Of a DNA stretch of 47,090 nt, positions 10,132 to 29,193 are shown one piece after another. Position 1 is the stretch's first letter. Every line of letters begins with the position of its first letter. This DNA comes from a virus: positions 1 through 47,090 of IMG/VR virus record IMGVR_UViG_3300043015_001450; one strand, given 5' to 3'. The position numbers and the translations under genes are program-made. The notes under the pieces were generated by a model. That model saw only the letters and a program-made list of their open reading frames with translations. It made no database searches and was not told where the DNA came from.

Positions 10132-10881
10132 TTAAAAATTTAATTGTATTGTAAACTCGTTAGCCGTCCTTTTTACGCTTTTTACGTAGTTAGGGTATAA
10201 TTCTATTAAGTCCTTAATAGCTTGGCGTTCTATATTAACAGTTCTGTAGCTTTTACAACCTCCATCAGTCGTCCAATGTTCATTCTCCCAGTGTAAATAT
10301 CTAACAGCTAAAATGCCGCCTTTTTCTACAATATGTCGCAAGCATATTTCATAGTCCTCTTTTACTATAAATTTTTCATTAAAATAATATTCACCATCAT
10401 TAATCATACCCATACAAGAGGCAGTCACGTATGAATGAAATAAAAAAGGCTTGTAAGGATGTGTTCCACGAGGTGCCGATTCTGTACGAACCCCCCATAT
10501 TTTGTATTGCATTTGCTCGCACAATTTAAAAAATAATAAAAATTGTTCTAACCAAAAATTCTCCTCTTTAATATCTATTTTTTGAGATTTACGTTCATGC
10601 AATTTTACGTAACCGCAAGTTTTTACATCATCATCAATAAATACTACATATTTTTCCTTTGTGTTTTTTAGTATCCAATTTCTAGTAGGCGTAATACCTT
10701 GTACATCATTTGGTACTGCTACTACATTTGTAATAAGTGATTGGTATTGGTGTATTTCACTTTTAGGCACATAAAATGTAGCACTGGGTAAAATTTTATT
10801 AGTTGTGGTTAAGCCAGCTCTACTCTTGCTCGGTACTGCTATTAGCATCTGTGAATCTTTTTTTAAAATCTTGCCATACAC
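10132..10881 (-). CDS. GT-A glycosyltransferase, TET-associated (TAGT/GREB1-like) type
   Basis: A 249-residue GT-A-fold enzyme. It opens with LIAVPSKSRAG (residues 13-23), followed by FYVPKSEIHQY. A TPTRNW segment and the metal-binding FIDDDV (D83-D85) come next, and a C-terminal FIVKEDYEICLRH and HWENEHWTTDGG. This order matches the TET-associated glycosyltransferase family, known in phages for decorating modified bases in DNA. No TET/JBP hydroxylase or base-modifying enzyme is visible here, so the acceptor is unknown; a protein or other substrate is possible. Met12 (start 10848) may be the true start because the family core begins there. It overlaps the truncated ParB-like gene in another frame. 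Confidence 0.7.
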   Translation of the reverse strand: MYGKILKKDSQMLIAVPSKSRAGLTTTNKILPSATFYVPKSEIHQYQSLITNVVAVPNDVQGITPTRNWILKNTKEKYVVFIDDDVKTCGYVKLHERKSQKIDIKEENFWLEQFLLFFKLCEQMQYKIWGVRTESAPRGTHPYKPFLFHSYVTASCMGMINDGEYYFNEKFIVKEDYEICLRHIVEKGGILAVRYLHWENEHWTTDGGCKSYRTVNIERQAIKDLIELYPNYVKSVKRTANEFTIQLNF

Positions 10882-11246: not shown

Positions 11247-11450
11247 TTATTTATCCCCTTTGTAAGACCTACGCTCACGGTAATATTTAATTTTAAAACC
11301 TGCTTGTCTTAATTCTTTAATAGCAGTTTTGCCAACATAACCATCAGCATCAAAATATACGCCCCTATCCAAAGCTGATAAAATATAACCTTTAACAATA
11401 TCAATTTGTGGTCTCCAAGAATTCGATATTCTTTTCGCATCTTTATTCAT
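11247..11450 (-). CDS. Small basic unknown protein (67 aa)
   Basis: First gene behind the consensus promoter at 11483-11511, with the shared leader AAATGGAGATATA before its ATG. It contains a compact helix-strand unit (GYVGKTAIKELRQAGFKIKYYRERR) that could be a small wing or DNA-binding element. No family is named with confidence. It ends one base before the next gene begins. Confidence 0.6.
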   Translation of the reverse strand: MNKDAKRISNSWRPQIDIVKGYILSALDRGVYFDADGYVGKTAIKELRQAGFKIKYYRERRSYKGDK

Positions 11451-11482
11451 TATATCTCCATTTACTTGTTGTTATACCATGA

Positions 11483-11757: not shown

Positions 11758-12009
11758 TTATAATTTATTTAAAAAATAATGTATTACGGCATTTATGGAT
11801 GTGTAATAGCTAGGACTTTCACCATTGCTATGAGAGTATTGAAAGCCACTTACAGTGCCATCTAAATTTGTGTAAAAGCTTAAAGCTGAACCGTCTTTAA
11901 ATTTACAATAGTACAAGTCATGGCTGGGATTACTATTATAAGTAGTATTTTTAGTAAACTTAAAGCCATGTTTAGCTAATTTGTTTAAAGTAAATTTTAA
12001 TTTTGCCAT
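11758..12009 (-). CDS. HicA/dsRBD-like or unknown small protein (83 aa)
   Basis: The frame opens at 12021 with ATGGAGATAAAA, but that ATG is part of the shared leader. ATG 12009 (MAKLKFTLNK) is the better start, with GGAG correctly placed. The protein has a KHGFKFTKNTTY helix-strand start and a strand-rich middle (YYCKFKDGSALSFYTNLDGTVSGFQYSHS). No family is named with confidence. Confidence 0.6.
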   Translation of the reverse strand: MAKLKFTLNKLAKHGFKFTKNTTYNSNPSHDLYYCKFKDGSALSFYTNLDGTVSGFQYSHSNGESPSYYTSINAVIHYFLNKL

Positions 12010-12052
12010 TTTTATCTCCATTTGTTTTAAAGTATCTCCTCTTGATGCGGAT

Positions 12053-12233: not shown

Positions 12234-12392
12234 TTATTGCTCGTTTGCTAGTGCAGTATTTAAATTTTCTAGTAACTTATCAAAGTTTTTAACCTCGTCA
12301 TCATCTGCACCATATTTAGCAATCCAATGTTCTCTGTTTTTTAAAGTCTCTGCAATTTCTTTAGCTAAAAATTCTTTTTGTGTGTTTTTCAT
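12234..12392 (-). CDS. Small acidic helical protein (52 aa)
   Basis: MKNTQKEFLAKEIAETLKNREHWIAKYG..., entirely helical and acidic, with the shared leader AAATGGAGATAATT seven bases before the ATG and its own promoter. The promoter and leader make the call strong despite the size. Just downstream, a different frame (12152-12240) stays open with a coding-like sequence (KEAREHSYCLTYANKKVKD) but no start codon. It may be a remnant. Confidence 0.7.
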   Translation of the reverse strand: MKNTQKEFLAKEIAETLKNREHWIAKYGADDDEVKNFDKLLENLNTALANEQ

Positions 12393-12441
12393 AATTATCT
12401 CCATTTGTTAGTTAAGTGGGCTATTCCCTTTCAATACTTAT

Positions 12442-13751: not shown

Positions 13752-13976
13752 TTAAAAGTCATTATATGTTTTAGTTCCAGCACTAATATCTGCCAACTGC
13801 TCTGGTGTGAAGCACCAAAACAACTCGTAAAATTCACTTTCAGTCACATTAGGGTTTCTATAACGTACACGTGCTATATAATCTTCACACAATTTTACCA
13901 AAGCTGATAATTTGTAATTTTTGTCTGATTTAAATTCAGTAAATTGTGCCACTGCTTCTAAAATTGCTTTATTCAT
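13752..13976 (-). CDS. Unknown small protein (74 aa)
   Basis: MNKAILEAVAQFTEFKSDKNYK... is helical, with ARVRYRNPNVTESEFYELFWCFTPEQLADISAG in the middle. It has its own family promoter (14021-14049) and the leader AAAATGGAGATAAA directly before the ATG. No domain recognised. It heads an operon leading to the membrane/barrel set. Confidence 0.65.
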   Translation of the reverse strand: MNKAILEAVAQFTEFKSDKNYKLSALVKLCEDYIARVRYRNPNVTESEFYELFWCFTPEQLADISAGTKTYNDF

Positions 13977-14020
13977 TTTATCTCCATTTTTATTAATAAG
14001 TATCTCATCTTGATGTAGAT

Positions 14021-14086: not shown

Positions 14087-14815
14087 TTATGAAAGCCAAA
14101 ATCTAAAAAAATTAGCAATACCCCCTTTATTGTTTAAACCTATACAATTATTCCAACTGGCACCGTAATTCTCAGCATAACTTAAATCAGTGTCGGTAAA
14201 ATTACAGTCTATAAATTCTGCCATTTGCATGTTTGCGTTTGATAAATTTGCTTTTGAAAAATTACATCTAATAAATTTTGAACGCTCATGCGAATTAAGA
14301 GCAAAGTTGCCATGTTGGGCATCAGAATTAAAAAATTTAGCACGACTTAAATCAGCGTTGGTAAAATTACAGCCAACAACCACTGTCCTGCTAAAATTAG
14401 CATGTGATAAATTAACATTTGTAAAATTGCAATTACTAACGCCAGCGGCATTATATAATTTTATGTTAGAAATCTGGGCATTTTGGAAATTGCAATCATT
14501 AAAATATGTGTTCTCAAAAGTATTATCATATAAATTTGCACTGGTAAAGCTGCAATTATCAAAGTTTGCATAATCAAAATCTGTAGCATTGATTTTAGCA
14601 TTATTAAAATTGCATTCAGAAAATTTACTGCTTTGAGGTTTAACTCTTAATTCATCTGTATAGATTAACCTCATATTATTAATAACAGCATTGCTAAAAT
14701 TAACATTTTTAAAATCTGATTTTTTAAAATCAGCATAATTCAAAGTAGTATTGCTGAAATCATGTTCTAAAAAATATTGGTCAGAAAACTCACCTTTTCT
14801 TGAAAATCCATCCAT
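14087..14815 (-). CDS. Pentapeptide-repeat protein (242 aa)
   Basis: Almost the whole chain is A(D/N)(L/F)xx repeats (CNFNNAKINATDFDYANFDNC, NFTNVNLSHANFSRT, NFTNADLSRAKF), forming a right-handed quadrilateral beta-helix. Known relatives such as MfpA/Qnr mimic DNA; others have no known function. The frame also opens at 14830 (MEIKA), but that ATG belongs to the shared leader. ATG 14815 (MDGFSRKGEF) is placed correctly behind GGAG. It has its own promoter. The C-terminus (ANFFRFWLS) is hydrophobic. Confidence 0.85.
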   Translation of the reverse strand: MDGFSRKGEFSDQYFLEHDFSNTTLNYADFKKSDFKNVNFSNAVINNMRLIYTDELRVKPQSSKFSECNFNNAKINATDFDYANFDNCSFTSANLYDNTFENTYFNDCNFQNAQISNIKLYNAAGVSNCNFTNVNLSHANFSRTVVVGCNFTNADLSRAKFFNSDAQHGNFALNSHERSKFIRCNFSKANLSNANMQMAEFIDCNFTDTDLSYAENYGASWNNCIGLNNKGGIANFFRFWLS

Positions 14816-14866
14816 CGCCTTTATCTCCATTTTTATAAATAAGGGTCATTCCCTCTTAATGCAGAT

Positions 14867-14924: not shown

Positions 14925-15395
14925 TCAGGAAGACCTTTTATTCCAAGTAACCAAATTTTTAAAAACTTCTACCATGATTGGGTAATTATCACGCTTGAAT
15001 TTTTTGTTAATATGTGATTTAAATTGTTGCACACAATTACTTAAATCTTGGCTATTCCATCCGAATCTATGCATAAGTGCCTTTCTAGCCTCTTTAACTG
15101 GCAACTCGTGCAAGTCATTGCACAAATAATATAATACAATCGCATAATCACGCTGCATGTTGTGAGCTATTTTATTTAAATCTACACCGCCTAAGCTACG
15201 TGCATGTAGCTTAAACTCATCTATACCTACATTTTGCAAGTATTCAAACAGCATATGCTCTGCTACTTCTTTGCTTGATATTACTTTGCTAAAGATGCTT
15301 GTTTTGCTCTGATATTCCTTGTCTTGCAAGTAGTAGAATGCACCGTCCAGCAGTGCATTCTTTATATTTCTCTCAGTATTTTCCTTGCCAGCCAT
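14925..15395 (-). CDS. Unknown protein next to Gp157 (156 aa)
   Basis: An all-helical, slightly basic protein (AEHMLFEYLQNVGIDEFKLHARSLGG, KEARKALMHRFGWNSQDLSNCVQQFKSHINKKF). Its start overlaps the Gp157 stop, so the two are co-translated. Position among SSB, annealing protein and Gp157 suggests a recombination/replication accessory. No family recognised. Confidence 0.65.
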   Translation of the reverse strand: MAGKENTERNIKNALLDGAFYYLQDKEYQSKTSIFSKVISSKEVAEHMLFEYLQNVGIDEFKLHARSLGGVDLNKIAHNMQRDYAIVLYYLCNDLHELPVKEARKALMHRFGWNSQDLSNCVQQFKSHINKKFKRDNYPIMVEVFKNLVTWNKRSS

Positions 15396-15922
15396 TATGT
15401 AATCCTAATGCTTGTTTTTTGCACTTCTTGAACGCCCTCAAGCTCTACACCTAAATCTTGTATAGCTTTTTTAGTAGCTACTTTATCAATTACAGCAGGT
15501 TTATATACAAGCTCTGGCATACCTTGCTCTATTAGCTTGTCATAATCTATCTCTAAAGATTTACGCTTGCTAATGCTTATTTTATGAAGCCCTGTATCCA
15601 CTTTCTGTTTACCTACTGCAACTAATGCAGCTTGCATATTACCACGTAACCAATCAATACTTGTATCATTGCTCTTTTTACGCTTTTGCAACCTTGCAAT
15701 CTGAGCAGATATATAATTGTTGTTTGCTTTTTTCTCAGATATTACCTGACAATACGCCTCCAGTTTTTGCTCTAGTCCTAAACCCTCTAAGCTGTCAAGA
15801 ATAGCCTGTTTTTGAATTTCTTTTGCTTCGTCTGTTAAATCTTCAAATTCCAAGTTATCAAGTAGTGAATCTAATTCTTTTACTGCTGTTGTTATTTCGT
15901 GTAATGTTTGTTTATCGCTCAT
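15395..15922 (-). CDS. Siphovirus Gp157-family protein
   Basis: A 175-residue protein with the family architecture: an acidic helical N-terminus, a long central coiled coil (LEQKLEAYCQVISEKKANNNYISAQIARLQKRKKSNDTSIDWLR), then the small beta domain with VDTGLHKISISKRKS, and a C-terminal KKAIQDLGVELEGVQEV. Gp157 members accompany SSB and ssDNA-annealing genes in phages and have been linked to phage recombination/resistance. It has its own family promoter and leader AAATGGAGATAAA. Confidence 0.85.
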   Translation of the reverse strand: MSDKQTLHEITTAVKELDSLLDNLEFEDLTDEAKEIQKQAILDSLEGLGLEQKLEAYCQVISEKKANNNYISAQIARLQKRKKSNDTSIDWLRGNMQAALVAVGKQKVDTGLHKISISKRKSLEIDYDKLIEQGMPELVYKPAVIDKVATKKAIQDLGVELEGVQEVQKTSIRIT

Positions 15923-15952
15923 TATTTATCTCCATTTGTTAATTAAAGTATT

Positions 15953-17222: not shown

Positions 17223-17814
17223 TATTTGCCTCCTCTTTTTTTAACTCCTCACTACGAGCCGTGCAAATATCTATAATTTCTTGGTTATGCTCTGGGTATT
17301 TTGTTTTAGTTTCTTGCAAATAAATTTTTAATGCTTCAACTGTATTAATATACTTAACTGTGTTTGCTATACCTTGTGCATTATATGCTTCTTGCGGTAT
17401 ATCGTTTACAGCATCTAGTCGTGCATCATCGCTTATATCTTCACCTGCATATAAACATAAACCTATCCCATGCCGTGCAATAGCTTTAGTAATTGCTCTT
17501 TGTATAGCTTTATTAGCATCCATGCTAGTAATTTTGTCTAGTGATATAGATTGATTGCGATTATTCATTACAGGCAAATACTCAGTATGTGTAATTTCAT
17601 CAACAGTTACAGATACCTCTACCCATGCAGTGCGTTCATCTGTATGATATAGCCAGCCTTTGTTATTTTTTATAATTGCATAGTTGGCGTTGGGATGTAT
17701 ACGCTTTAACTGCTCCCATGCATACGTCCATGATAAATATTTTAAACGCCCTTTTGTTTCTGTTTTATCTGCAATGTTTACCTTGTTTAGGTTTATAAAA
17801 TAATTATTCTCCAT
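17215..17814 (-). CDS. ssDNA-annealing protein, DUF1071/Sak-like
   Basis: A 199-residue protein with the DUF1071 hallmarks in order: INLNKVNIADKTETKGRLKYLSW, then AWEQLKRIHPNANY, VEVSVTVDEITHTEYLPVM, and AIQRAITKAIARHGIGLCLYAGED. This family belongs to the Rad52-like phage annealing proteins. It pairs single strands during phage recombination. The frame can be opened nine residues earlier, but ATG 17814 with GAGG six bases before it is the natural start. It lies with SSB and Gp157 as a recombination set. Confidence 0.88.
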   Translation of the reverse strand: MENNYFINLNKVNIADKTETKGRLKYLSWTYAWEQLKRIHPNANYAIIKNNKGWLYHTDERTAWVEVSVTVDEITHTEYLPVMNNRNQSISLDKITSMDANKAIQRAITKAIARHGIGLCLYAGEDISDDARLDAVNDIPQEAYNAQGIANTVKYINTVEALKIYLQETKTKYPEHNQEIIDICTARSEELKKEEANND

Positions 17815-17974
17815 GGCACACCTCGCAATAAGCAAAGCCACCGCCGTTGCACTGGCAATCTTCTTGTGCTTCTAGTTCTTGCTTTTTTCTTGCTTGCTCT
17901 GCTTTAATTTGCTCAATAAAAGCTCTGTTGTCTGCAAACATTAGCTCTTTAAAAAGTCCTGCATAGTCTCTCAT
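17804..17974 (-). CDS. Small protein with a C-terminal CxC...CxxC metal site (56 aa)
   Basis: MRDYAGLFKELMFADNRAF..., a charged helix, then DCQCNGGGFAYCEVCHGE, a DnaJ-like CxC-Gly-rich-CxxCxG zinc motif. The upstream ATG at 17986 belongs to the shared leader; ATG 17974 is used here. The end overlaps the annealing-protein start by 11 bases. Probably a small zinc protein bound to the recombination set. Confidence 0.65.
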   Translation of the reverse strand: MRDYAGLFKELMFADNRAFIEQIKAEQARKKQELEAQEDCQCNGGGFAYCEVCHGE

Positions 17975-18005
17975 GTTTATCTCCATTGTTGTTGATTAAA
18001 GCATT

Positions 18006-18043: not shown

Positions 18044-19003
18044 TCAATCTTCCCAACATCTACCATCTGGCATGATTGTATCGCTATTATCAAAATCCAC
18101 ACCATCCAAATCAACTATCGCATTTTTAAATGTTGTCTCTTCACAGTATGTGCCACTGCCATAATCGTTTGGGTCGTAGTCTCGAGAATCTATAAAAGTT
18201 GAATCTGTTAAATCGGCATATTCAAAAGACACACATTCAATATATGTTTCGTTAAAAGTGCAATTAATTAGCTTTGATTGTGCAAATTTTGAATTAAATA
18301 AATCAGCACCTGTAAAATTTGTATAAGAGCCTTTTGCGTTTGTAAAATCGCAGTATTTAGCATCACAATTTATAAATGTAGCATTGTCTAACAATGTATT
18401 TATAAAATTACCAATAATGCTTGCGTTTGTAAAATCGCAACCTGTAAAATTACAACCTGTAAAATTCCCTGTAATGCTTGCGTTTGTAAAATCGCAACCT
18501 GCAAAATTGCAGCCTGTAAAATCGCAGGTGTTACTGCTTAACTTCATATTTCTAAAATCTAAATTAGAAAAATTTTGATTAGATAAATTAATAGGCGTGA
18601 AATTATAATTTATGATTAAAGGTGAGGCTTTGTAGCGATGAAACACTTCTGTAAAAGAGATGGGGTTTTTAGCAATAAAATCTGTGAAATTTGACATCTG
18701 CCCTGTATCGTCTGTTTTTAGTACATTTACAATGCTTTTACAATCTTCTAAATAAGCATTGCTTTCTGATATGTTGCTACCATTTGTATAATTTAAGCAT
18801 TTGTATAAATTAGTGCAACTATCGCAATCAATGCAATATTTGCAATTCATACAATTCCAACATCCTAAATTATACAGGTTATCCTCTTGGTAATTTGGAT
18901 ACTTCTTGGCAAATTCTGGCGATACGCCGTTTATTCTTTTGTTGGCTCTATTTTTAAATTCGCCAAAATTCTTGAAAATTTTTACATGCCCATTTTTATA
19001 CAT
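18044..19003 (-). CDS. Pentapeptide-repeat protein with a CxxC ladder (319 aa)
   Basis: Residues about 48-69 carry seven cysteines in a CxxC ladder (CWNCMNCKYCIDCDSC) that continues with the same spacing of a beta-helix turn. Residues about 150-300 are pentapeptide repeats (NFTGCNFTGCDFTNASI...). A 19-residue unit (GCNF-GCDFTNASI-GNF) is duplicated, visible in the DNA at 18416-18530. The N-terminus (residues 1-45) is basic and differs from both. The C-terminus is acidic and ends CWED. The leader ATGGAGATAATAG precedes the ATG by 16 bases. No known function. Confidence 0.8.
   Translation of the reverse strand: MYKNGHVKIFKNFGEFKNRANKRINGVSPEFAKKYPNYQEDNLYNLGCWNCMNCKYCIDCDSCTNLYKCLNYTNGSNISESNAYLEDCKSIVNVLKTDDTGQMSNFTDFIAKNPISFTEVFHRYKASPLIINYNFTPINLSNQNFSNLDFRNMKLSSNTCDFTGCNFAGCDFTNASITGNFTGCNFTGCDFTNASIIGNFINTLLDNATFINCDAKYCDFTNAKGSYTNFTGADLFNSKFAQSKLINCTFNETYIECVSFEYADLTDSTFIDSRDYDPNDYGSGTYCEETTFKNAIVDLDGVDFDNSDTIMPDGRCWED
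18416..18530. repeat. 57-bp internal tandem duplication in the pentapeptide gene
   Basis: Two adjacent units starting aatgcttgcgtttgtaaaa read as two copies of the same 19-residue block. The copies differ at a few bases. Recent duplication is the usual way such beta-helices lengthen. Confidence 0.75.
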
Positions 19004-19042
19004 AATTATCTATTATCTCCATTTGTTGTTAATTAAAGCAAT

Positions 19043-20155: not shown

Positions 20156-20722
20156 TTACACTACTTTTAAGCTGCCTACATTTACAGCTCCACGGCTAAT
20201 TCTTTTGCTGTTCTGCTGTTCTGCATAACCTATAGCCTTATCTGGTAAACTAGCACTATCTGCTTGTGCGTTCTGCTTGTATCTAGCTATAAAATCGTTT
20301 TTCATAAAATCTAATTCTGACCTAGTTTTATTAGTTATTGCATACCAGCCTCCAAGCTCCTCTACACATGCCACCAGTGCTTTGTCTTCATGTATAAAAT
20401 TAGAGTAAGGACTAATTGAACGTATACAACGCCTAAGCTCAATGTATGCATCCTCTGCTTGCTTCTCCAGCTTTTCCTTTTGAAGTTGTGCATCTTGTTC
20501 GGTGTTGCCTCTTATCTGCTCTGTGATGCTTTTAAGCGTTACCTTGCCGTATACCTTGTGCTTACCTGTCATAATATTAATACAAGCCCTTTTAACAGCT
20601 TCTAAGTCTTCTTGCATTAACTCACCAAGCCATAATAACTTTAATTCTTTGCTTAGAGTGATATTCTCGCTTTCACAGAAAGTAGTTAAAAAACTCTTTA
20701 GATTATCTGCTTTTTTATCCAT
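20156..20722 (-). CDS. Replication accessory protein (188 aa), duplicated N-terminal domain
   Basis: Residues 1-85 (MDKKADNLKSFLTTFCESENI...GKVTLKSITEQIRGN) are a helical domain repeated in the upstream 83-aa gene. Residues 95-150 (YIELRRCIRSISPYSNF, VACVEELGGWYAITNKTRSELDFMKNDFIARYK) match the C-terminal region of many phage replication/helicase-loader-type proteins (DUF6475-like). It follows the DUF6291-like replication gene. A role in DNA replication is likely. Confidence 0.65.
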   Translation of the reverse strand: MDKKADNLKSFLTTFCESENITLSKELKLLWLGELMQEDLEAVKRACINIMTGKHKVYGKVTLKSITEQIRGNTEQDAQLQKEKLEKQAEDAYIELRRCIRSISPYSNFIHEDKALVACVEELGGWYAITNKTRSELDFMKNDFIARYKQNAQADSASLPDKAIGYAEQQNSKRISRGAVNVGSLKVV

Positions 20723-23330: not shown

Positions 23331-23522
23331 TTAATCGTTATCATAACTATTTTCTGCTACTTCCTTGCACAACTCTATAAATCTTACAGCAGCATTATAT
23401 TCCTGTTCGCTACAATTTTGCTTAATAGAATCTAGACAGTAGTCATGCTCCTTTAACTTCTCTACGCATTGATTCATATCATCTACGGTATTTTCAAAAG
23501 CACAATAACTCATATTTGTCAT
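23331..23522 (-). CDS. Small acidic unknown protein (63 aa)
   Basis: MTNMSYCAFENTVDDMNQCVEKLKEHDYCLDSIKQNCSEQEYN...: acidic and helical with four cysteines. It has its own promoter, the leader AATGGAGATAAA, and its own terminator, so it is a monocistronic early gene set right beside the origin-like region. No family recognised. Confidence 0.65.
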   Translation of the reverse strand: MTNMSYCAFENTVDDMNQCVEKLKEHDYCLDSIKQNCSEQEYNAAVRFIELCKEVAENSYDND

Positions 23523-23551
23523 TTTATCTCCATTATATTAATTAAAGTAGT

Positions 23552-23580
23552 AATATAATATAATTAGTAGAGATTGTCAG
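23552..23580 (-). promoter_or_regulatory. Early promoter, CTGACA-N17-TATATT
   Basis: -35 at 23575-23580, -10 at 23552-23557. Drives the 63-aa gene; leader AATGGAGATAA. Confidence 0.78.
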
Positions 23581-23616
23581 TATTTATACAACAAACACTC
23601 CATTTTTTTCAGGCAT

Positions 23617-23680
23617 AAAAAAACCAGCACCCCTACTAGAGATGCTGGCACACTATATATAGCAGCTTAGCTAACTGCTA
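23617..23680 (-). ncRNA. Small RNA unit A (about 64 nt)
   Basis: Begins about 7 bases after the promoter at 23687-23714. It contains a 6-bp hairpin (TAGCAG...CTGCTA) and ends in a terminator with CCAGCATC/GGTGCTGG arms and T7 (23617-23648). The arms need a U-G pair that exists only on the minus strand, which fixes the direction. No start codon with a ribosome site. Confidence 0.6.
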
Positions 23681-23686
23681 GTTGAT

Positions 23687-23714
23687 ATTATATTGTATTA
23701 AGTTTGAAAGACAA
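23687..23714 (-). promoter_or_regulatory. Promoter of RNA unit A, TTGTCT-N16-TATAAT
   Basis: -35 at 23709-23714, -10 at 23687-23692. Four of the five gene-free units use a 16-base spacer, unlike the early family (17). Confidence 0.65.
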
Positions 23715-23726
23715 TATTTCAGGCAC

Positions 23727-23874
23727 AAAAAAACCAGCACCCTCGACAAAGTAAAGATGCTGGTAATCTGTGATGATTAGAAACTTAACTTATATGGATG
23801 TCCCTCACCATCGTGCCTAATAAAAGACAAGCTAATCCACCGCCCTGTAAGGACTAAGCTAATATTAAAATCTT
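23727..23874 (-). ncRNA. Small RNA unit B (about 148 nt)
   Basis: Starts after the promoter at 23881-23908 and ends at a terminator (23727-23763) with the same CCAGCATC/GGTGCTGG arms and T7. It contains the GGTGGAT motif shared with units C and D. The only ATG inside gives a 7-residue peptide without a ribosome site. Confidence 0.6.
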
Positions 23875-23880
23875 GTAAAT

Positions 23881-23908
23881 ATTATAATTAAATAAAGTGT
23901 AATGTAAA
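23881..23908 (-). promoter_or_regulatory. Promoter of RNA unit B, TTTACA-N16-TATAAT
   Basis: -35 at 23903-23908, -10 at 23881-23886. Nearly identical to the promoter of unit C, including the spacer start TTACACTTTATTT. Confidence 0.68.
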
Positions 23909-23918
23909 AAGGATTTAC

Positions 23919-24077
23919 AAAAAAAAAGTGGATTACGTAGCTAGAATCTCCCTTACAGTAGAGTTCCAGCCACGCCGTGATTACACAAGCAGACAAGCAG
24001 ACAGCTTAATCTTTTTTATACTTTTATAGATATCCACCACGTGCATCCGACACCCAAGTACAAAACTTATAATCTTT
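23919..24077 (-). ncRNA. Small RNA unit C (about 159 nt), paralogue of D
   Basis: Follows the promoter at 24084-24111 and ends in T9 (23919-23927). GTGGAT (24032-24037) can pair with ATCCAC (23928-23933) directly before the T run, closing a large structure. Inside is the hairpin GCTGGAACTC/GAGATTCTAGC. The same hairpin, with G-U changed to G-C, occurs in unit D. Segments AAGATTAAGC and CTGCTTGTG are shared in the same order. No coding frame. Confidence 0.6.
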
Positions 24078-24083
24078 TAAATT

Positions 24084-24111
24084 ATTATAACAAAATAAAG
24101 TGGAATGTAAA
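24084..24111 (-). promoter_or_regulatory. Promoter of RNA unit C, TTTACA-N16-TATAAT
   Basis: -35 at 24106-24111, -10 at 24084-24089. Spacer starts TTCCACTTTATTT, nearly the same as unit B. Confidence 0.68.
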
Positions 24112-24319
24112 ATAAATTAACGAAGCTGGAAGCTCCGAACTAGTAGAGTTCCAGCTACGCACGGCTAACCAGATAAGCACAAGCAGACGGCAGGCTTAAT
24201 CTTTTTCATGCTTTACGAATAACCCACCGCACGAGGCTACCCAGCACAAAACTAAAAAGCATGTACCGATAGGGTTCTCCCAATCCAAAAATACATGCCG
24301 ATGGGGTTCTCCCAATCCA
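24112..24319 (-). ncRNA. Small RNA unit D (up to about 208 nt), paralogue of C
   Basis: Begins after the promoter at 24326-24353. It opens with two tandem hairpins GATTGGG-AGAA-CCC (24300-24317 and 24268-24285), continues with the GGTGGGT, AAGATTAAGC and CTGCTTGTG segments shared with C, and ends in the hairpin GCTGGAACTC/GAGCTTCCAGC (24121-24159). The 3' end is only U-rich, so the exact end is uncertain and it might read through into C. Confidence 0.55.
24268..24317. repeat. Two tandem hairpin repeats GGGAGAACCC
   Basis: 18-base units at 24268-24285 and 24300-24317, 32 bases apart, each GAT-T-GGG-AGAA-CCC-Y-ATC on the minus strand with a single internal mismatch and an AGAA tetraloop. Not a CRISPR: only two copies, and the unit folds on itself. 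Confidence 0.75.
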
Positions 24320-24325
24320 CGGTTA

Positions 24326-24353
24326 ATTATATTAAATTATTGCAGTTAATCAA
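24326..24353 (-). promoter_or_regulatory. Promoter of RNA unit D, TTGATT-N16-TATAAT
   Basis: -35 at 24348-24353, -10 at 24326-24331. Perfect -10, 16-base spacer. Confidence 0.62.
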
Positions 24354-24453
24354 TAATTAAAATGTAGTTAATGCTTATTTTAGATTAAGTGCAAATGCCT
24401 ATAAATAAAAAGGTTTTAGGGTTTACTTGTAGTTATTAATTTATTTTAAGCAT

Positions 24454-24606
24454 AAAAAAGCAAGTAACACTGCCCTTGTCTGGAAATAAAAATCAAGAAA
24501 ACCAGATTGGCAATGCTACTTGCTTAGTTCGTTCAAAATGGAGATAATGAATCGAAAACCAATACCTACAAACAATCTTTAATTAAAGACTATTCTCCTT
24601 ATTGTA
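24454..24606 (-). ncRNA. Small RNA unit E (about 153 nt), antisense to the shared early leader
   Basis: Starts after the promoter at 24613-24641. It ends in a terminator with 16-bp arms (24459-24474 with 24509-24524) and TTTTTT. Two of the pairs are G-U only when read on the minus strand, so the RNA is minus-strand. Between them, at 24535-24549, it carries CAUUAUCUCCAUUUU, the exact complement of the AAAATGGAGATAATG leader that precedes about ten early genes. No start codon follows its own AGGAG. Likely a trans-acting antisense RNA on the phage's own transcripts. Confidence 0.6.
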
Positions 24607-24612
24607 AGAGTA

Positions 24613-24641
24613 ATTATAAGCAAGATTTAACAGATTAGCAA
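24613..24641 (-). promoter_or_regulatory. Promoter of RNA unit E, TTGCTA-N17-TATAAT
   Basis: -35 at 24636-24641 (inside the end of the DUF1064-like gene), -10 at 24613-24618. Confidence 0.6.
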
Positions 24642-24988
24642 TAGTAACTTTTAACTATTTTAATGTGCTTTTGTGTAGGGTTACCAGTTACCAGCACTAA
24701 CTTAGCATTCTTGCTTTTATCAATATAATCGTAAAAAAGATGTTGTGCTAATTGCCACTTGTTAAGCCAGTCGTTCGTTTCAAGTCCTCGCTTAACCTCT
24801 ACCCACTCTATACAGTCGCCAGTATCAACTACAAAATCTATCTTGTAGCTTTTGTAGTGTAGAGGTTGCTGCGAGCCGTTGTAGACTACTAAATGTATTG
24901 CTTTTTGCTCGGTGTAGCTAATGATATTGCCTTTGTCTATTTCCTTGTCTAAATCGTCTTTGTAGGACTGCTCAATTTTAGAACGCAT
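24635..24988 (-). CDS. DUF1064-like PD-(D/E)xK nuclease (117 aa)
   Basis: MRSKIEQSYKDDLDKEIDKGNI... with YKIDFVVDTGDCIEWVEVKRG (about 46-66), the D...ExK metal site of restriction-fold enzymes. Family members are small phage endonucleases near recombination genes. It overlaps the RusA stop by 11 bases and closes the recombination operon; the RNA-E promoter sits on its last codons. Confidence 0.7.
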   Translation of the reverse strand: MRSKIEQSYKDDLDKEIDKGNIISYTEQKAIHLVVYNGSQQPLHYKSYKIDFVVDTGDCIEWVEVKRGLETNDWLNKWQLAQHLFYDYIDKSKNAKLVLVTGNPTQKHIKIVKSYYC

Positions 24989-28959: not shown

Positions 28960-29160
28960 TTATAAGCCCATTAATTTGCTTTCTAATTTTCTTGCAAAGT
29001 ATGACAAGACTAACGAGTATTTAGCGTTTAAATATTCATTGCTGTAAATTGCACACATATAATATTCTACAGCTTTAAATGCTCTCTCTAAAGCGTAAAT
29101 ATTATTAGAATTGATAGCAGATTTTGCTATGTGTATAGACTGAGTTAGACTTATATTCAT
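28960..29160 (-). CDS. Small helical unknown protein (66 aa)
   Basis: MNISLTQSIHIAKSAINSNNIYALERAFKAVEYYMCAIYS...: entirely helical. ATG 29160 follows the shared leader AAAATGGAGATAAAT; the frame could open at 29172 in the leader ATG. It heads the operon that carries the pentapeptide gene, endolysin, ThyX and the recombination genes. Confidence 0.6.
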   Translation of the reverse strand: MNISLTQSIHIAKSAINSNNIYALERAFKAVEYYMCAIYSNEYLNAKYSLVLSYFARKLESKLMGL

Positions 29161-29193
29161 ATTTATCTCCATTTTATGTTGTTGTTGGAGATT

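What the first reader, a model, noticed from the sequence alone, without database searches (positions are those of the whole stretch)
24454..24606. Candidate trans-acting phage sRNA antisense to the shared ribosome-binding leader of about ten phage genes
Seen: a gene-free unit with TTGCTA-N17-TATAAT, no coding frame, and a strong terminator whose G-U pairs fix it on the minus strand. Its middle (24535-24549) is the exact complement of AAAATGGAGATAATG. The same leader, AATGGAGATAA, stands directly before the starts of ten genes (at 11450, 12009, 12392, 13976, 14815, 15922, 17974, 19003, 23522, 29160), giving 11-13 contiguous pairs over the Shine-Dalgarno in nearly all. Its 5' part also has AAGGAGA, which could pair with the same segment and act as a switch. 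Inference: one RNA could shut down translation of a whole early regulon, for instance at the early-late switch or against superinfecting relatives. I know of no described phage RNA like this.
Basis: partly seen in the sequence, partly recalled or inferred. Interest (0 to 1): 0.93.

Follow-up and report, generated by a model that had tools for sequence, protein, structure and literature searches.

The report
Phage small RNA targeting shared gene-start leader
An uncultured phage carries a gene-free small RNA unit whose hairpin loop is the exact mirror of a short leader placed in front of ten of its own genes, so it probably switches off their translation together; it also suggests a possible role for the unexplained 'start-associated sequences' of other phages.

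Summary
On the minus strand at 24606-24454 there is no ORF, a TTGCTA-N17-TATAAT promoter and a 17-bp G-U-containing terminator ending in U6. Between them a small hairpin has UUAUCUCCAUUU in its 12-nt loop. In the sense of the genes, every 10-nt or longer complement of that loop in the 47-kb window lies directly before one of ten gene starts. The leader is nearly invariant over the same 12 nt and variable outside. Expected copies of AATGGAGATAA on the opposite strand: 0.004; found: 1. Each leader has its own TTGACA-like N17 TATAWT promoter, and leader and promoter are kept in two related phage contigs. Neither reaches the RNA locus, so covariation is untested, and no homologue was found in the collections searched.

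The leader family resembles the 'Start-Associated Sequences' (SAS) of cluster K mycobacteriophages, whose role is unknown. In Adephagia the single reverse-oriented SAS copy lies in the apical loop of a strong hairpin where late transcription starts; several relatives keep that loop, others lose it although SAS persists.

Best reading: a trans-acting sRNA that blocks ribosome binding on a phage regulon. Mechanism class known; this use looks new. Transcription and function unproven.

The parts
24613..24641 (-). sRNA promoter TTGCTA-N17-TATAAT (10 of 12 consensus matches)
24454..24606 (-). candidate trans-acting small RNA, about 153 nt: 5' hairpin, anti-leader hairpin, terminator
   Evidence: fold -48.8 kcal/mol, z -7.0, against -31.7 on the other strand; no minus-strand ORF of 20 aa or more
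24527..24556 (-). anti-leader hairpin: UUCG(A)UUCA stem, 12-nt loop UUAUCUCCAUUU at 24547-24536, UGAACGAA stem
   Evidence: loop complement found only at the ten leaders at 10 nt or more
24454..24525 (-). intrinsic terminator: 17-bp stem with G-U pairs, then U6
11452..11462 (-). target leader AATGGAGATAT before gene 11247-11450; promoter TTGACA-N17-TATAAT
12012..12022 (-). target leader AATGGAGATAA before gene 11758-12009; promoter TTGACA-N17-TATATT
12395..12405 (-). target leader before gene 12234-12392; promoter TTGACA-N17-TATATT
13978..13988 (-). target leader before gene 13752-13976; leader kept in relative G003
14821..14831 (-). target leader before pentapeptide-repeat gene 14087-14815
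15926..15936 (-). target leader before Gam/Gp157-like gene 15395-15922; leader kept in G003
17977..17987 (-). target leader before gene 17804-17974, just upstream of the Sak-like annealing protein gene; leader kept in G003
19013..19023 (-). target leader before pentapeptide-repeat gene 18044-19003
23524..23534 (-). target leader before gene 23331-23522
29163..29173 (-). target leader before gene 28960-29160; leader and promoter kept in L184, a relative

Best explanation
The unit makes a phage-encoded, trans-acting small RNA of about 153 nt from its own promoter. Its 12-nt loop UUAUCUCCAUUU pairs with the near-identical leader AAATGGAGATAA in up to ten phage mRNAs. This covers the Shine-Dalgarno GGAG and the stretch towards the start codon, so it blocks ribosome entry and lowers translation of early, non-structural genes as one regulon. 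Because the RNA and its targets share the same promoter type, the simplest dynamics are delayed negative feedback: sRNA accumulates alongside the early mRNAs and closes early synthesis. Shown by sequence: promoter, terminator, structure, loop-leader complementarity, specificity, leader conservation. Inferred: transcription, pairing in the cell, repression, timing.
For: (1) Minus-strand fold -48.8 kcal/mol, z -7.0, with the complement in a hairpin loop and a terminator at the end. (2) Plus-strand expectation of AATGGAGATAA is 0.004, observed 1. (3) All ten 10-nt or longer complements of the loop on the gene strand are the ten leaders, with no other site. Loop-only duplex energies are -13.5 to -14.5 kcal/mol at targets against a mean of -5.4 and a best of -11.3 at 66 other starts. 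(4) Leader columns are conserved 8-10 of 10 over the 12 loop-complementary nt and at most 8 of 10 (mostly 4-7) outside. Leaders pair with a generic 16S tail at only -6.4 kcal/mol (-9.1 in one case), less than several other genes, so their fixity is not explained by SD strength. (5) Full-length RNA against the ten leaders averages -22.5 kcal/mol; shuffles -16.7 +/- 1.5, 1 of 400 as low. (6) Leaders and their N17 promoters are kept in relatives G003 and L184. (7) Parallel in Adephagia: the only reverse SAS copy is the apical loop of a -34 kcal/mol hairpin; 4 of 1500 random sites do so.
Against: No transcript data. No homologue of the RNA in viral contigs or phage records, so conservation and covariation of the loop are untested. 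Full-length duplex energies do not cleanly separate the ten targets from other gene starts (others mean -18.6, best -30.7); only the loop does. The anti-leader stem is short (8 pairs with a bulge; -4.2 kcal/mol with the loop held open). In cluster K the loop is lost in several phages that keep SAS, and cluster EF phage AnnaSerena has no antisense copy in a loop.
Confidence: 0.68

Rival explanations
1. The RNA is the 3' UTR and terminator of the operon ending at gene 24635-24988. The loop pairs with leaders only incidentally, or acts as a 3'-UTR-derived sRNA made by read-through or processing.
For: The terminator lies just downstream of a minus-strand operon whose last gene stops at 24635; the promoter's -35 overlaps the end of that gene.
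Against: Own 10-of-12 promoter with the same N17 spacing as the leader promoters. The complement sits in a separate hairpin, not in the terminator. Chance of the match is low. A processed 3'-UTR sRNA would still work as in the best explanation.
Confidence: 0.14
2. The plus-strand copy is a real leader in sense: a plus-strand promoter drives a tiny ORF (ATG at 24547, 11 codons) or the remnant of an inverted early gene.
For: The plus strand reads AAAATGGAGATAATG followed by a short open frame.
Against: All genes assigned here lie on the minus strand. The plus-strand fold is weaker and loses the G-U pairs. No N17 promoter stands upstream of it on the plus strand; every true leader has one. The promoter and terminator that are present face the other way.
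Confidence: 0.07
3. The leader is conserved because a phage or host protein binds it (a RegA-like translational repressor or an initiation factor for modified ribosomes), or because promoter-leader cassettes were recently duplicated; the hairpin is a decoy or a coincidence.
For: The same leader occurs with its promoter as a cassette at unrelated genes. AnnaSerena and several cluster K phages have start-associated sequences without an antisense loop. A protein role for Adephagia gp51 has been speculated (PMC11373665).
Against: A decoy for a protein should carry the leader in sense, but the terminated RNA carries the complement. Recent duplication does not explain sharp conservation limits with diverged flanks. 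The chance of the match falling in a 153-nt terminated unit is well below the 0.004 expected for the whole strand.
Confidence: 0.11

Closest known systems
Start-Associated Sequences (SAS/ESAS) of cluster K mycobacteriophages and cluster EF Microbacterium phages (PMC3203893, PMC7302621, PMC11373665)
   Same: A 10-13 nt sequence over the Shine-Dalgarno, repeated about ten or more times just before starts of mostly non-structural genes, conserved beyond SD needs; promoter immediately upstream (for a subset of SAS genes in cluster K). In Adephagia, one reverse copy in the loop of an intergenic hairpin.
   Different: Unrelated sequence; the ESAS 17-bp inverted repeats were not tested for here; the complementary copy here is in a standalone unit with promoter and terminator. 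SAS function is unknown and no RNA partner is described in the papers read.
C4 antisense RNA of phages P1/P7 (PMC12197685, PMC8198154)
   Same: Phage RNA that exposes its complement in loops and blocks a ribosome-binding site.
   Different: C4 controls its own operon (icd/ant) for immunity; here ten separate transcription units would be controlled in trans through one shared leader.
P22 sar RNA and other cis-antisense phage RNAs (PMC12197685)
   Same: Pairs with a start region and blocks initiation.
   Different: Acts on a single target it is cis-antisense to; this one is encoded elsewhere and has many targets.
Bacterial C-rich-loop sRNAs: IsrR, FsrA and related (PMC9410917)
   Same: Single-stranded C-containing loop pairs with the Shine-Dalgarno of several mRNAs; terminator at the 3' end.
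   Different: Host-encoded, short imperfect seeds; here an 11-12 nt perfect match to a leader held fixed in the phage's own genes.
Lambda PreS (LPR1) sRNA (PMC12197685)
   Same: Trans-acting sRNA encoded by a phage.
   Different: Reported to target a host gene (dnaN), not a shared leader of phage genes.

Membership tests
Trans-encoded, Shine-Dalgarno-blocking bacterial/phage sRNA | own promoter and intrinsic terminator, no coding frame | tested here: met
   (sequence level only)
Trans-encoded, Shine-Dalgarno-blocking bacterial/phage sRNA | exposed seed complementary to translation start regions of several distant genes | tested here: met
   12-nt loop, 11-12 nt match at ten starts and nowhere else at 10 nt or more
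Trans-encoded, Shine-Dalgarno-blocking bacterial/phage sRNA | seed and targets conserved or covarying in relatives | tested here: inconclusive
   Leaders kept in G003 and L184; neither contig reaches the RNA locus
Trans-encoded, Shine-Dalgarno-blocking bacterial/phage sRNA | transcript exists and changes target translation | not testable with these tools
   needs RNA-seq and reporter assays
Start-Associated Sequence (SAS) of cluster K phages | consensus GGGATAGGAGCCC | tested here: not met
   the leader here is AAATGGAGATAA; it works like SAS but is not SAS
Start-Associated Sequence (SAS) of cluster K phages | repeated just before starts, fixed beyond SD needs, in the non-structural region, promoter upstream | tested here: met
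   targets listed in parts
Start-Associated Sequence (SAS) of cluster K phages | ESAS 17-bp inverted repeats upstream | not tested
   upstream sequences were compared only for promoter hexamers
P1/P7 C4 antisense RNA | encoded upstream in the same transcript as its icd/ant target | tested here: not met
   separate unit with its own terminator; targets are spread from 11 to 29 kb
Any Rfam 15 family | score at or above the gathering threshold | tested here: not met
   no match in the window; only chance-level matches at E up to 5 in 23500-24660

The most novel reading that the evidence does not exclude
Some phages fix one start-associated leader across a regulon so that a single small RNA, carrying the complement in a hairpin loop, can control it in trans. 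This system and the anti-SAS hairpin at the late-transcription start of Adephagia-like phages would be two independent inventions of the same device, an 'anti-SAS RNA', which would answer what SAS elements are for in at least some phages.
Probability: 0.33. Interest if true: 0.88.

Novelty: new variant of a known kind. Interest (0 to 1): 0.72.

Why it matters
The phage antisense RNAs described in the papers read act on one or a few targets. Here the phage would have standardised the start regions of ten of its own genes so that one RNA can address them all, a simple post-transcriptional regulon. The same logic gives a direct, testable hypothesis for the start-associated sequences described in cluster K mycobacteriophages in 2011, whose role was still called unknown in 2024: that a phage RNA reads them.

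Tried and rejected
Homologues of the RNA: exact 20-mer scan of viral contigs (none); gapped loop-plus-terminator scan (105 stretches; of the distinct sites folded and inspected, none besides the window's own combined a loop hairpin, terminator and leader family); distant BLAST of phage records (none); six records encoding terminase relatives (chance-level matches only). Relatives sought with gene 24635-24988, terminase, RusA-like, 20156-20722 and 30432-31118 proteins and in prokaryote genomes. Only G003 and L184 were shown to share the leader cassette at orthologous genes, and both end before the RNA locus. G006 (terminase 72% identical) has no leader, so it cannot test covariation. AnnaSerena's partial antisense copy at 11319 lies in a terminator-like stem, not a loop. 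The 5' AAGGAGA switch: not in the predicted fold. Rfam found nothing. One search was an ill-chosen arbitrary peptide with no result and is not used.

Full report
WHAT THE WINDOW IS. A 47,090-base virus record, 34% GC, with the assigned phage genes on the minus strand: gpA-type terminase, lambda-type portal, tail sheath, tape measure, RusA-like, Sak-like and Gam-like recombination genes. The host is unknown; the nearest terminases in phage records are only about 40% identical.

THE OBSERVATION. The minus strand at 24606-24454 has no ORF of 20 aa, a TTGCTA-N17-TATAAT promoter at 24641-24613, and a terminator whose 17-bp stem contains G-U pairs and is followed by U6. The fold is -48.8 kcal/mol (z -7.0) on this strand and -31.7 on the other. 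The plus strand at 24535-24549 is AAAATGGAGATAATG. AATGGAGATA occurs ten times on the minus strand, each time directly before a gene start, and once on the plus strand, here. By Markov models AATGGAGATAA is expected 0.004 times on the plus strand and the 15-mer 2e-5 times.

The complement lies in its own hairpin, UUCG(A)UUCA-[UUAUCUCCAUUU]-UGAACGAA. The four central loop nucleotides CUCC, which face the Shine-Dalgarno, are unpaired with probability 0.99; two weak internal A-U pairs flank them. The ten leaders are conserved 8-10 of 10 over the 12 nt complementary to the loop and less outside. On the gene strand there are exactly ten places with 10 or more contiguous nucleotides complementary to the loop, and they are the ten leaders. 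Loop-only duplex energies are -13.5 to -14.5 kcal/mol at the targets; the other 66 starts average -5.4 with a best of -11.3. Leaders pair only weakly with a generic 16S tail (-6.4, in one case -9.1), less than several ordinary genes of this phage, so Shine-Dalgarno strength does not explain their fixity. With the whole RNA the separation is less clean: target mean -22.5 against -16.7 +/- 1.5 for shuffled RNAs (1 of 400 as low), but other genes reach -30.7 through pairs outside the loop.

PROMOTER-LEADER CASSETTES. Every leader has a TTGACA-like / TATAWT promoter with a spacer of exactly 17, 10-12 of 12 matches, 16-36 nt upstream; the RNA's own promoter is of the same type. Three orthologous genes in G003 (window 13752-13976, 15395-15922, 17804-17974) and one in L184 (window 28960-29160) keep the leader and promoter. 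G003 also has the leader at two further genes.

RELATIVES. G003 ends near the equivalent of window position 22.7 kb and L184 just after the RusA-like gene, so neither shows the RNA locus. G006, 72% identical in terminase, lacks the leader. Covariation, the most telling comparative test, is therefore not available.

A SECOND CASE. [quoted passage not shown] their role was still unknown in 2024, and ESAS elements contain the promoters (PMC11373665). I tested the reverse copy in Adephagia: it lies at 58682-58694 in the apical loop (GGCCTCCTATCCCC region) of a -34 kcal/mol hairpin; only 4 of 1500 random positions in that arm lie in such a loop. The hairpin is in the 92-93 intergenic region, where late transcription is reported to start (PMC11373665). 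The loop is kept, with stem differences, in Murucutumbu, Yunkel11, Validus, Niklas and Amelie; it is degenerate in Amohnition (still able to pair with a one-base bulge, by inspection) and Amgine, and absent in SirPhilip, Pixie, Keshu, Yuna, Marshawn and KiSi; the homologous stretch was not located in PhelpsODU and Krueger. SAS itself is present in Pixie, Amohnition and SirPhilip, so the device, if real, is not general even in cluster K. AnnaSerena (cluster EF) has no antisense SAS copy in a loop.

MECHANISM. Shown by sequence: promoter, terminator, structure, loop-leader complementarity, specificity, leader fixity, cassette conservation. Inferred: the RNA is made, pairs in trans, blocks 30S entry at up to ten mRNAs, and so lowers a set of early proteins. 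Shared promoter type suggests co-expression and delayed negative feedback rather than a separate late trigger; superinfection exclusion is possible but has no specific support.

KNOWN OR NEW. Blocking a ribosome-binding site by an exposed C-containing loop is known from bacterial sRNAs (PMC9410917) and from P1/P7 C4 RNA (PMC12197685). I found no paper describing a phage RNA that reads a leader shared by many of the phage's own genes, within an open-access library only. I file it as a new variant of a known kind.

Noticed in passing
window 23523-24450, minus strand: The rest of the 1.1-kb gene-free gap looks like further noncoding units: more sigma-70-like promoters (24353, 24111, 23908, 23714) and two strong near-identical terminators at 23764-23733 and 23649-23623, related to the sRNA terminator tail.
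   Followed up: partly
window 24255-24110 and 24072-23920, minus strand: Two paralogous, about 150-nt structured RNA-like sequences in tandem (78% mean column identity, shared AAAAAGATTAAGC and GCTGGAACTCTACT blocks), with no Rfam or phage-record match and no genome-contig match to a gapped pattern.
   Followed up: partly
window 24318-24255, minus strand: Tandem 32-nt repeat forming two small hairpins with GGATTGGGAGAACCC(C/T)ATCGG followed by a GCATGTA...TACATGC-TTTTT terminator-like element.
   Followed up: no
L288 28664-28716 (Adephagia 58663-58715) and homologues L294-L305: Hairpin with an anti-SAS apical loop at the start of late transcription in several cluster K mycobacteriophages, degenerate or lost in others.
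   Followed up: partly
window 14087-14815, 18044-19003: Two of the leader-bearing genes encode pentapeptide-repeat proteins, a fold known from DNA-gyrase inhibitors (own knowledge); possible host-takeover factors.
   Followed up: no
window 10132-10881: Protein with a match to beta-glucosyl-HMC-alpha-glucosyltransferase (PHROG 842), which may point to glycosylated phage DNA bases.
   Followed up: no
L127 (203-kb viral contig): AATGGAGATA 19 times at spacings that are often multiples of 69 nt: looks like a repeat inside coding sequence, not a leader family.
   Followed up: partly
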